A stretch of DNA of 64,000 bases from Xanthomonas cassavae CFBP 4642 (GTDB lineage: Bacteria > Pseudomonadota > Gammaproteobacteria > Xanthomonadales > Xanthomonadaceae): assembly GCF_000454545.1 (NCBI RefSeq), contig NZ_CM002139.1, positions 864,971-928,970 of the forward strand, given 5' to 3'. The translations under genes and the position numbers were made by a program. Of this stretch, positions 20,469 to 29,481 are shown one piece after another. Position 1 is the stretch's first letter. Every line of letters starts with the position of its first letter. Below the pieces are notes generated by a model that saw only the letters and a list, made by a program, of their open reading frames with translations, was not told the origin of the DNA and made no database searches.

Positions 20469-21083
20469 ATGGCCTCGATCTATGCATTGAAGGGACGCTT
20501 CCAGGCGCTGCTGCGGCCCATGGTGGGCGCGCTCCACCGCGGCGGCATCACCGCCAACCAGGTGACACTCACCGCGGCAGCGGTATCGCTGCTGGTGGCA
20601 GCAGTGGTCTACCGCTCCGGCGCCAGCTGGCCCTGGCTCTATCTGCTGCTGCCGGTGTGGATGCTGCTGCGCATGGGCCTCAATGCCATCGACGGCATGC
20701 TGGCGCGCGAGTTCGGCCAGCAGTCGCGGCTGGGCGCCTACCTCAACGAGGTGTGCGACGTGGTGGCCGATGCAGCGCTGTACTTGAGCCTGCTCGGTGT
20801 GCCGGGCGTGGGCACGCACTGGCTGTGGCTGTTTGCGCTGCTGGCGGCGCTGACCGAATACGCCGGCGTGCTCGGGCTGATGGTCGGTGCCAGCCGCCGC
20901 TACGACGGGCCGATGGGCAAGAGCGACCGTGCCTTCGTCATCGGCGTGGTGGGGCTGGGCCTGGCCTGCGGCCTGCTGGGGCCGCGTGGCGTCACCTGGG
21001 TCGCCATGGCGCTGTGCATTGCCTGCCTGGCCACGGTAGGGCGGCGGGTGCATGCCGGGCTGGCAGAGGCGCCGGCCGGCTGA
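20469..21083 (+). CDS. CDP-alcohol phosphatidyltransferase family protein (YnbA-like)
   Basis: A 204-aa membrane enzyme with about six helices. The family signature DGx2ARx8Gx3Dx3D runs from Asp75 to Asp101 (DGMLAREFGQQSRLG ... EVCDVVAD). It transfers a phospho-alcohol from a CDP-linked donor to another alcohol at the inner membrane; the acceptor is unknown. It opens an eight-gene same-strand cluster that also contains a CdsA-like enzyme, a PlsC acyltransferase and a phosphatase, the gene content of E. coli ynbABCD. It is divergent from purH across a 74-base spacer. Confidence 0.9.
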   Translation: MASIYALKGRFQALLRPMVGALHRGGITANQVTLTAAAVSLLVAAVVYRSGASWPWLYLLLPVWMLLRMGLNAIDGMLAREFGQQSRLGAYLNEVCDVVADAALYLSLLGVPGVGTHWLWLFALLAALTEYAGVLGLMVGASRRYDGPMGKSDRAFVIGVVGLGLACGLLGPRGVTWVAMALCIACLATVGRRVHAGLAEAPAG

Positions 21084-21170
21084 GCGCGCCGCGGTCGCCC
21101 AGAAAATCTCCGGCCGCGCCGTCATCGGCACGACCGCTGCATCACCACTGTTCTCTTTCAGGATGATCCC

Positions 21171-27881: not shown

Positions 27882-28510
27882 TTGCCCGCTTGATCGCACG
27901 CGCCTGCAGCGGCGCCATCCGCACGCTCACCGGCGCACGCGCGTTGTGGCGCGGCTGCGCGCCATCCAACGAGCGCCGGGTGTATTACGGCAACCATGCC
28001 AGCCACGGCGATTTCGTGCTGATCTGGTCGTCGTTGCCGGCCAGCCTGCGGCATGAAGTGCGCCCGGTGGCCGCGGCCGACTACTGGCAACGCACTGCGC
28101 TGCGGCGCTATCTGATCCATGCGGTGTTCAATGGCGTGCTGATCGAACGCGATGCGGCGCGGCGCACCCGCGACCCGATCGAATGCCTGTGCGATGCAGT
28201 GGATGCCGGCGATTCGTTGATCCTGTTTCCAGAGGGCACGCGCAATCCCGACGAAGGCGTGCTGCCGTTCAAGAGCGGGCTGTATCACCTGGCGCGGCAA
28301 CGCCCGGAACTGGAGTTCGTGCCGGTGTGGATCGACAACCTCAAGCGGGTGATGCCCAAGGGCAAGTGGCTGCCGCTGCCGCTGTTGTGCACCACCACCT
28401 TCGGTGCACCGTTGCGGCTGGATGCCGACGAAGACAGGGACGCGTTTCTGGCGCGTGCGCGTGAGGCGCTGCTGGCGTTGTCACCGGACCAGCTGGAGGC
28501 GCGCGCATGA
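27878..28510 (+). CDS. PlsC-type 1-acyl-glycerol-phosphate acyltransferase
   Basis: A 210-aa acyltransferase with the NHASHGD motif (His40, Asp45) and the FPEGTR substrate-binding motif at about 115. It resembles AGPAT enzymes that acylate lysophosphatidate or a related glycerol phosphate. The chromosome surely has a housekeeping plsC elsewhere, so this copy is presumably dedicated to the cluster lipid (inference). The ATG at 27878 overlaps the previous stop; the longer upstream frame is antisense-like and discarded. Confidence 0.9.
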   Translation: MIARLIARACSGAIRTLTGARALWRGCAPSNERRVYYGNHASHGDFVLIWSSLPASLRHEVRPVAAADYWQRTALRRYLIHAVFNGVLIERDAARRTRDPIECLCDAVDAGDSLILFPEGTRNPDEGVLPFKSGLYHLARQRPELEFVPVWIDNLKRVMPKGKWLPLPLLCTTTFGAPLRLDADEDRDAFLARAREALLALSPDQLEARA

Positions 28511-29481
28511 GCCTGTATCCGTACAGCGGGCAGTTGCAGCAGTCTTCGATGCATCAGCAGACGCTGTGGTTGTTCAGCGGCATCGCGCTGGTTTTGATCG
28601 TTGCCACGCTGATTTCCGAAACGCTGCGTTGGCGCGCACGCGAACGCCCGAGCGCAGTGCTGGACAACCTGGTCGCACGCATTCGCGCGTGGTGGGTCAT
28701 GGCAGGAGTGGTCGGTATCGCGTTCGTCTTCGGGCGCGCCGGGGTGATCGGCTTGTTTGCATTAGTGTCGCTGTTTGCGCTGCGCGAGTTCATCACGCTC
28801 ACGCCCACCCGGCGCGGCGATTACTATGCGCTGCTGGCGGCGTTCTACATCGTGCTGCCCTGGCAGTACGGGCTGGTGTGGACCGGCTGGTACGGCATGT
28901 ACACGCTGCTGATTCCGGTCTACGCGTTCCTAGTGCTGCCGATCCTGGCCACCATCGGCGGCGATACCACGCGCTATCTGGAGCGCACCGCCAAGGTACA
29001 ATGGGGCCTGATGATCTGCGTGTTCTGCATCTCGCACGTGCCGGCCTTGTTGAACCTTGAGATCCCCGGCTATGCCGGGCGCAACCTGCTGCTGATCGCG
29101 TTCCTGGTGATCGTGGTGCAGTCCTCTGACGTGTTGCAGTATGTGTGGGGCAAGCTGGCCGGCCGGCACCTGATCGCGCCGAAGCTGTCGCCGTCCAAGA
29201 CGGTGGAGGGTTTTATCGGCGGCGTGCTGTCGGCCAGCCTGCTCGGCATGGCGCTGTGGTGGATCACCCCGTTCGCGCCCTGGCATGCATTCGGGCTGGC
29301 GCTGGTGGCCAACCTGATGGGCTTCTTCGGCGGGCTGGTGATGTCGGCGATCAAGCGCGATCGCGGCATCAAGGACTGGGGCCACATGATCGAAGGCCAC
29401 GGCGGCGTACTCGATCGCCTGGACTCGGTGTGCTTCGCCGCCCCGGTGTTCTTCCATCTGATCCGCTATGGCTGGGCGTAG
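28507..29481 (+). CDS. CdsA-like phosphatidate cytidylyltransferase (YnbB-like)
   Basis: A 324-aa enzyme with about eight membrane helices and the CdsA signature near the C-terminus: SAIKRDRGIKDWGHMIEGHG, then GVLDRLDS. It makes CDP-diacylglycerol, or a CDP-activated analogue, from CTP and a phosphatidic acid. Located at the end of the cluster, it would supply the CDP-lipid donor for the two CDP-alcohol transferases. It is longer than typical CdsA (about 285 aa) by an N-terminal extension, as in YnbB. It overlaps the acyltransferase gene by four bases. Confidence 0.92.
   Translation: MSLYPYSGQLQQSSMHQQTLWLFSGIALVLIVATLISETLRWRARERPSAVLDNLVARIRAWWVMAGVVGIAFVFGRAGVIGLFALVSLFALREFITLTPTRRGDYYALLAAFYIVLPWQYGLVWTGWYGMYTLLIPVYAFLVLPILATIGGDTTRYLERTAKVQWGLMICVFCISHVPALLNLEIPGYAGRNLLLIAFLVIVVQSSDVLQYVWGKLAGRHLIAPKLSPSKTVEGFIGGVLSASLLGMALWWITPFAPWHAFGLALVANLMGFFGGLVMSAIKRDRGIKDWGHMIEGHGGVLDRLDSVCFAAPVFFHLIRYGWA

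What the first reader, a model, noticed from the sequence alone, without database searches (positions are those of the whole stretch)
20469..29481. Eight-gene lipid-synthesis cluster of unknown product (ynbABCD-like, enlarged)
Genes overlap by ATGA or TGATG from 22922 to 29481 and encode PlsC acyltransferase, CdsA-like cytidylyltransferase, two CDP-alcohol transferases, PAP2/DSP phosphatase, hydrolase-methyltransferase, a small membrane protein and a Gly/Cys-tailed membrane protein. A complete acylate, activate, transfer and dephosphorylate route is encoded beside no known lipid pathway. Family knowledge links parts to E. coli ynbABCD, itself of unknown function. The product (an unusual phospholipid, possibly methylated) is inference.
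Basis: partly seen in the sequence, partly recalled or inferred. Interest (0 to 1): 0.85.

Follow-up and report, generated by a model that had tools for sequence, protein, structure and literature searches.

The report
Modular lipid-making gene cluster, rewired enzyme
A Xanthomonas gene cluster appears to build an unidentified membrane lipid around a three-gene core shared by many bacteria, whose key enzyme family consistently lacks two metal-binding residues thought to be essential in its relatives.

Summary
The cluster is real and conserved. Of 80 related loci, 78 carry A+B+C+G+H together. Comparison resolves nested modules: an A-G-H core (CDP-alcohol phosphotransferase homologue, PlsC, YnbB-type CdsA); B, C and D, mostly together; and E-F, seen in some Xanthomonas and Lysobacter. 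The unexpected point is A, with its distant paralogue F: the signature D1xxD2GxxAR...GxxxD3xxxD4, called 'absolutely conserved' in print, here has Asn at D1 and D3 (195 of 195 rows of the top score band, E. coli YnbA included). In CHPT1 these two are the carboxylates that bridge both Mg ions. Acceptor-phosphate arginines are mostly kept. In 119 family genomes, YnbB-type CdsA and this N/N enzyme occur in the same 34. I propose a dedicated CDP-diacylglycerol-dependent pathway to a non-housekeeping phospholipid, made by a phosphotransferase with a rebuilt metal centre, then finished by phosphatase C and hydrolase/methyltransferase B. Product, acceptor and methylation are not shown.

The parts
20469..21083 (+). 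A: type I N/N CDP-alcohol phosphotransferase homologue (YnbA family), 204 aa
   Evidence: PF01066 35.4 bits, cut-off 22; best solved relative of the A+F profile is 6h53, E 3.8e-16
20670..20672 (+). codon of Arg68, four residues before the D1 position; invariant in the N/N clade
   Evidence: invariant in 27 A+F rows; R in every row of 60 bits or more, but also in 3 of the 10 D/D rows
20682..20684 (+). codon of Asn72 at the D1 position of the CDP-AP signature
20745..20747 (+). codon of Asn93 at the D3 position of the CDP-AP signature
21171..22925 (+). B: alpha/beta hydrolase (monoacylglycerol-lipase-like) + class I methyltransferase (PF12147), YnbC-like, 584 aa
   Evidence: PF12147 506.6 bits, PF12146 225.7 bits; methyltransferase model
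22922..24259 (+). C: PAP2-like membrane domain + dual-specificity phosphatase, YnbD-like, 445 aa
   Evidence: DSPc 33.9 bits, cut-off 33.5; NQ(A/S)PSLH, TTxQHHxxD and CALGxxRS conserved in all 19 sequences aligned; model pLDDT 87.3
24256..24699 (+). D: small membrane protein, no known family, 147 aa
   Evidence: no Pfam match; present in 77 of 80 loci
24696..25016 (+). E, 5' part, ends at the IS element
25020..26082 (+). IS30-family insertion element, from outer end of one inverted-repeat arm to the other (transposase 25065-26081)
   Evidence: NF033563 287.4 bits; inverted repeats
26086..27237 (+). E, 3' part: TIGR04222 membrane domain with Gly/Cys-rich tail
   Evidence: TIGR04222 132.7 bits, cut-off 43
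27237..27881 (+). F: type II N/N CDP-alcohol phosphotransferase homologue, 214 aa
   Evidence: PF01066 25.0 bits; in the type II clade
27878..28510 (+). G: PlsC-type acyltransferase, 210 aa
   Evidence: PF01553 58.4 bits; invariant NHxSHxD and PEGTR in 19 sequences
28507..29481 (+). H: YnbB-type CdsA (CTP:phosphatidate cytidylyltransferase-like), 324 aa
   Evidence: PF01148 230.7 bits; invariant K-R, K-D, H-G-G and D-R-x-D in 19 sequences

Best explanation
The locus is a dedicated pathway to a non-housekeeping phospholipid, built on a three-enzyme core. G (PlsC) acylates a lysophosphatidate-like acceptor, and H (YnbB-type CdsA) activates the product to CDP-diacylglycerol (family knowledge plus intact motifs). 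A, and in this lineage also F, transfers the phosphatidyl group to a small acceptor that itself carries a phosphate (inferred from kept acceptor-site arginines). A and F belong to a clade of CDP-alcohol phosphotransferase homologues in which the aspartates at signature positions D1 and D3 are asparagine and an arginine four residues before the first never varies (shown). Catalysis therefore probably runs with a changed metal centre, perhaps one metal ion (inferred). C then removes the acceptor's phosphate (inferred). B trims acyl chains and/or methylates the product (inferred). B, C and D come and go, mostly together; E-F is a further cassette, broken in this strain.
For: Linkage: 78 of 80 loci hold A+B+C+G+H. 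Core: of 43 N/N-type loci without B nearby (one of them A/N), 39 have both PlsC and YnbB within 6 kb, against 0 of 9 canonical D/D rows in 7 loci. Co-occurrence: the N/N enzyme and YnbB-type CdsA are in the same 34 of 119 family genomes; phylum level 56 with both, 1 N/N-type only, 13 YnbB only, 328 neither. Signature: R68-N1-D2-N3-D4 in 195 of 195 rows of 200 bits or more; 36 of 45 at 100-200 (others N/S 5, S/N 2, A/N 1, N/H 1); 5 of 5 at 60-100; of 11 rows under 60 bits, 10 have D1 and D3 and one is a fragment. Canonical control: 30 of 30 loci DDDD. Rows repeat some proteins; among 135 distinct type I sequences both Asn codons occur (N1 AAC 89, AAT 46; N3 AAC 115, AAT 20), so Asn is kept through silent change. 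All 78 N/N-type rows lie on one side of a 100/96 branch. D1 and D3 bridge both Mg in xlCHPT1 (PMC10182977). Acceptor-phosphate R155/R195 of Mtb PgsA1 (PMC6506517, PMC4634129) align with R154/R193, invariant in 27 A+F rows.
Against: No biochemistry: product, acceptor and metal need are unknown. A profile alignment, not a structure of A, places N72, N93 and R68. Arg at the R68 column also occurs in 3 of the 10 D/D rows (L239, L240, L242), so it is not exclusive to the clade, and that it faces the metal site is untested. In Mtb PgsA1 the passages seen describe only D3, not D1, as bridging. D4-to-Asn nearly abolishes activity in MtPIPS and any Asp-to-Ala leaves under 20% in xlCHPT1, so the N/N enzymes could be weak or inactive. 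R193 is lost in two type II rows (L231, L232). 13 of 69 phylum genomes with YnbB-type CdsA have no detected N/N enzyme (PlsC is still adjacent in 13 of 13), so YnbB can work without it or the partner is too diverged. G401 has an A/N enzyme with no YnbB. In G160, G368 and G410 the B-carrying locus lacks H nearby; H lies elsewhere. C's PAP2 half scores below Pfam's cut-off. B, C and D are absent from many cores, so the phosphatase and methylation steps cannot be general.
Confidence: 0.5

Rival explanations
1. The pathway makes an MPIase-type glycolipid: YnbB forms CDP-diacylglycerol and a sugar-1-phosphate (GlcNAc-1-P) is joined to it as sugar-PP-diacylglycerol, with A doing or helping this phosphate-to-phosphate transfer, which needs less base catalysis.
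For: YnbB overproduction raises MPIase in E. coli (PMC6362211); reviews assign YnbB to GlcNAc-PP-DAG formation (PMC7018664, PMC10881803). A keeps a phosphate-binding acceptor site.
Against: [quoted passage not shown] YnbB-type CdsA occurs in 34 of 119 family genomes, too patchy for a lipid reported as essential, unless it is only a backup. D4, the base, is kept in every row except the fragment.
Confidence: 0.15
2. A and F are pseudo-enzymes that bind CDP-diacylglycerol and act as scaffolds or regulators for the PlsC-YnbB pair; PlsC plus YnbB only raise phosphatidate/CDP-diacylglycerol supply.
For: Two signature aspartates are lost; type II outside the cluster also loses the signature Arg (V, I, M or L). 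PlsC and YnbB stay paired where no N/N enzyme was found (13 of 13).
Against: D2, D4 (the catalytic base), CDP-binding N30 and acceptor arginines R154/R193 are invariant in 27 A+F rows; a scaffold would not need them.
Confidence: 0.17
3. An ordinary second copy of a known pathway (phosphatidylglycerol, cardiolipin or phosphatidylinositol).
Against: All such scores are far below cut-off (A 71.7 of 180 and 56.5 of 170); no inositol-phosphate synthase family PF07994 in the genome; the genome has three D/D CDP-APs and another CdsA elsewhere; the signature differs.
Confidence: 0.13

Closest known systems
Escherichia coli ynbABCD
   Same: All four encoded proteins are homologous, E. coli YnbA carries the same N1/N3 signature, and the genes are adjacent.
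   Different: The E. coli chromosome record looked at (L110) lacks PlsC, D, E and F in the operon; order is A-H-B-C. One E. coli plasmid copy (L111) adds PlsC but has a short C and an A annotated as frameshifted.
Mycobacterial phosphatidylinositol-phosphate synthase PgsA1 (PDB 6h53/6h59)
   Same: Same superfamily by profile (E 3.8e-16), same acceptor-phosphate arginines R155/R195 by alignment.
   Different: D68 and D89 of PgsA1 are N72 and N93 in A; Arg68 and a 2-residue insertion near it; K135 not kept; NCBIfam PIP-synthase cut-off not reached.
YnbB/MPIase pathway
   Same: H is YnbB-type (2.3e-71 to E. coli YnbB).
   Different: The recurring genomic partners are PlsC and the N/N phosphotransferase; no other gene family recurs in more than 8 of 43 core loci.

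Membership tests
CDP-alcohol phosphotransferases (PF01066) | Pfam curated score cut-off 22 bits | tested here: met
   A 35.4, F 25.0 bits
CDP-alcohol phosphotransferases (PF01066) | signature D1xxD2G1xxAR...G2xxxD3xxxD4 with four Asp (PMC4634129, PMC10182977) | tested here: not met
   D1 and D3 are Asn in A and F; D2 and D4 kept. Homologue of the superfamily, not filed as a canonical member
Phosphatidylinositol-/archaetidylinositol-phosphate synthases | NCBIfam equivalog cut-offs (180 and 170 bits) | tested here: not met
   A 71.7 and 56.5; F 55.9 and 40.3
Phosphatidylinositol-/archaetidylinositol-phosphate synthases | a source of inositol phosphate (PF07994 synthase) in the genome | tested here: not met
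   0 matches in G000
E. coli ynbABCD operon family | linked homologues of YnbA, YnbB, YnbC and YnbD | tested here: met
   78 of 80 loci with A+B+C+G+H
MPIase biosynthesis | forms GlcNAc-PP-diacylglycerol | not testable with these tools
   needs enzyme assay
PAP2 superfamily (C, N-terminal half) | Pfam PAP2_3 cut-off 27 bits | tested here: not met
   13.6 bits for C, 21.2 for E. coli YnbD
PAP2 superfamily (C, N-terminal half) | PAP2-like motifs (motif recalled) | tested here: met
   NQ(A/S)PSLH and TTxQHHxxD in 19 of 19 aligned sequences
PAP2 superfamily (C, N-terminal half) | fold | tested here: inconclusive
   the phosphatase half filled the fold lists
Dual-specificity phosphatases (C, C-terminal half) | Pfam DSPc cut-off 33.5 bits and CxxxxxR active site | tested here: met
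   33.9 bits; CALGxxRS in 19 of 19 aligned sequences
IS30 family | NF033563 cut-off 80 bits | tested here: met
   287.4 bits

The most novel reading that the evidence does not exclude
YnbA and its kin are a distinct catalytic clade of the CDP-alcohol phosphotransferases that works without the doubly bridged di-magnesium centre. With a dedicated PlsC and YnbB they form an overlooked three-enzyme phospholipid pathway, found in 57 of 398 sampled Pseudomonadota genomes (sequences checked; one of the 57 is A/N), while a cyanobacterial (L145) and a Fusobacterium (L144) locus carry N/N-type relatives with part of the module. YnbB's main role would then be to feed this enzyme rather than MPIase synthesis.
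Probability: 0.35. Interest if true: 0.85.

Novelty: new variant of a known kind. Interest (0 to 1): 0.7.

Why it matters
A superfamily found in prokaryotes and eukaryotes is defined in the literature by eight 'absolutely conserved' residues. Here a deep clade keeps a fixed exception at two of them, the two that bridge both metal ions in CHPT1, and keeps company with two dedicated lipid enzymes. If it is active, the doubly bridged two-metal mechanism is not obligatory; if not, a conserved inactive homologue needs explaining. Because E. coli carries the family (ynbABCD), a y-gene operon of unknown product becomes directly testable with a short list of acceptors and a metal titration.
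Full report
WHAT IS THERE. The window lies in a Xanthomonas genome: gene A is 98% identical to X. floridensis over 199 columns, and gene B is 96% identical to X. floridensis and X. codiaei. The genome itself is unnamed (G000, 5.27 Mb). The cluster starts about 75 bp from the likely start of a gene that runs the other way and that I recognise as purH (name recalled). It reads A-B-C-D-E-F-G-H on the plus strand. The gene overlaps are real, but gene E is split by an IS30-family element. 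Of 21 loci with E hits, 20 were scored as one ORF and one as partial; L041, among the 20, looks frame-shifted. The break is thus a feature of this strain, not of the cluster.

HOW CONSERVED. A search with B in genome contigs found 227 relatives and kept the best 80 loci. Of these 80, A is found in 79, B 80, C 79, D 77, G 79 and H 79; A+B+C+G+H together in 78. The two exceptions are a 5.4-kb contig and one locus without an intact C. At the thresholds used, E and F occur together in 20 and neither in 60; L039 and L042 hold fragments of F, and L042 of E. The 80 loci are Xanthomonas, Stenotrophomonas, Lysobacter, Luteimonas, Pseudomonas, Cupriavidus, Burkholderia, Labrys and a few unclassified or single others. 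In Burkholderia, G and H run divergently on the other side of A. Outlying versions: one E. coli chromosome A-H-B-C; an E. coli plasmid A-H-G-B and a short C; a Pseudanabaena plasmid A-H-G and the methyltransferase half of B; Fusobacterium B-A-H; L159 A-B-G-H without C and D, and L158 A-B only. So B, C and D are mostly, not always, together.

THE CORE. In 119 genomes of the family, B (PF12147, E under 1e-100) is in 21, and one further match is weak. A (E under 1e-50) is in 25, including all 21. The four with A but no B hold A-G-H (L164-L167). Nine more genomes hold a second kind of A-like enzyme (F', E 1e-23 to 4e-28 to F), again beside G and H. H (YnbB-type, E at most 1e-30) is in 34 genomes, and these are exactly the 25+9. 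At phylum level, 398 genomes: 64 match the A+F profile at E at most 1e-12, of which 7 proved canonical D/D, leaving 57, one of them A/N. YnbB-type H at 190 bits or more is in 69 (the next band, 148 bits or less, is taken to be ordinary CdsA); both in 56, N/N-type alone 1, H alone 13, neither 328. In the 13, H lies directly beside PlsC in 13 of 13, and no N/N enzyme was seen in those stretches. Of 43 N/N-type loci without B nearby, PlsC lies within 6 kb in 39, H in 40, both in 39; for canonical D/D rows 0 of 9, in 7 loci. Two of the four N/N-type loci without PlsC nearby (L221 and L235, genomes G510 and G434) have a PlsC-H pair elsewhere in the genome. Against strict linkage: in G160, G368 and G410 the locus with B (L154, L153, L158) has no H beside it, and H lies elsewhere. 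So the smallest unit is PlsC + YnbB-type CdsA, nearly always with an N/N phosphotransferase in the genome. B, C, D and E-F are additions; in the tree the label 'with B' needs 10 changes among the rows. The window's H is 80-97% identical to H of many type I genomes (60-69% to the rest of type I), against 54-60% in type II genomes, which suggests that E-F was added to a type I cluster.

THE ODD ENZYME. Published work defines the superfamily by D1xxD2G1xxAR...G2xxxD3xxxD4, called eight 'absolutely conserved' residues (PMC4634129, passages). In the window A reads NAIDGMLAREFGQQSRLGAYLNEVCD and F NRMDGVLARQAHMISRAGEVYNDAPD: N at D1 and D3, D at D2 and D4. On profile columns over all ORFs of the loci held at that time: rows of 200 bits or more, 195 of 195 have R68, N1, D2, N3, D4; 100-200 bits, 36 of 45 (the rest N/S 5, S/N 2, A/N 1, N/H 1, all with R68); 60-100 bits, 5 of 5; under 60 bits, 11 rows, 10 with D1 and D3 and one fragment. 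Rows include repeats of the same locus. Arg at the R68 column is also in 3 of the 10 D/D rows, so it is invariant in the clade but not exclusive to it. As controls, the genome's three other CDP-alcohol phosphotransferases have D1 and D3, as do 30 of 30 best PF01066 places from 40 family genomes (these 30 look like one kind by their motif). Both Asn codons are used at both sites among 135 distinct type I sequences, so Asn is held by selection. A tree of 87 rows puts all 78 N/N-type rows on one side of a branch (100/96) and splits them into type I (A and the A/N row L215; 98/96) and type II (F and F'; 100/97), with F a sister clade of F'. Some D/D rows are long branches, so the root is unsure. 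Type II outside the cluster also loses the signature Arg (V, I, M or L), and two type II rows lose R193.

WHAT IT MEANS FOR CHEMISTRY. In xlCHPT1, Asp111 (D1) and Asp132 (D3) each contact both Mg ions, forming two bridges, and Asp-to-Ala at any of the four leaves under 20% activity (PMC10182977, passages). In Mtb PgsA1, D68, D71 and D89 bind Mg-1, D89 (D3) moves between bridging and one-metal binding, and D93 (D4) is the presumed base (PMC6506517, passages); D1 is not described there as bridging. The profile of A+F aligns to PgsA1 with N72 on D68, D75 on D71, N93 on D89, D97 on D93, R154 on R155 and R193 on R195. R155 and R195 are taken to hold the acceptor's phosphate, and Ala there severely lowers activity (PMC4634129, PMC6506517). 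In 27 A and F rows R68, D75, D97, R154 and R193 never vary, and N72 and N93 are at 90% or more. So donor binding, base and acceptor-phosphate site look intact while two metal ligands are changed; the loss of two negative charges would match the loss of one Mg2+. That last step is inference.

THE OTHER ENZYMES. H has the CdsA signature residues invariant, G has NHxSHxD and PEGTR. C keeps PAP2-like motifs and a CX5R phosphatase site in 19 of 19 sequences; its model is confident (pLDDT 87.3, pTM 0.87), and its phosphatase half matches dual-specificity phosphatases including PTPMT1, without singling any out. B's hydrolase is nearest monoacylglycerol lipases. Its methyltransferase is a class I fold of unknown substrate and is the part kept in the cyanobacterial version. 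D has no known family. E carries TIGR04222.

CONCLUSION. Its interest lies less in being an enlarged ynbABCD than in the three-enzyme core and the altered phosphotransferase at its heart. Product, acceptor and metal use are open. A phosphatidyl-X made via phosphatidyl-X-phosphate is my best guess; an MPIase-like glycolipid and a non-catalytic A are the main rivals. E. coli K-12 is the place to test it.

Noticed in passing
window 25020-26082: IS30-family element splits gene E of the cluster in this strain; one search scored 20 of 21 relatives with E as one ORF.
   Followed up: yes
L177 (G017), L178 (G092): Two genomes of the same genus hold only a short stub of A, beside genes that look like purine genes by recall: likely remnants of a lost cluster.
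   Followed up: partly
L215/L294 (G401) 7743-8972: A lone relative with Ala at D1 and Asn at D3, beside an ORF that holds MIRIGYVPGAFDLFH, like a TagD-type cytidylyltransferase (recalled resemblance, not scanned), no PlsC or YnbB nearby.
   Followed up: no
L156 9208-11358: A WG-repeat protein lies between B and C.
   Followed up: no
L142 5254-13107: Moraxella plasmid: B homologue in two ORFs, then patatin, SDR, CdsA-like and PAP2 genes, with a transposase gene between.
   Followed up: no
L143 1880-7605: Kosakonia plasmid: B-like gene beside ACP, ketosynthase, MaoC and FabG genes.
   Followed up: no
L276-L289 except L280: PlsC directly beside YnbB-type CdsA in 13 genomes with no N/N phosphotransferase found: an even smaller pair.
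   Followed up: partly
L154 and L225 (both G160): One genome carries a type I A-B-C-D locus without G-H and, elsewhere, a type II enzyme with G and H: the two kinds may share one PlsC-YnbB pair.
   Followed up: no
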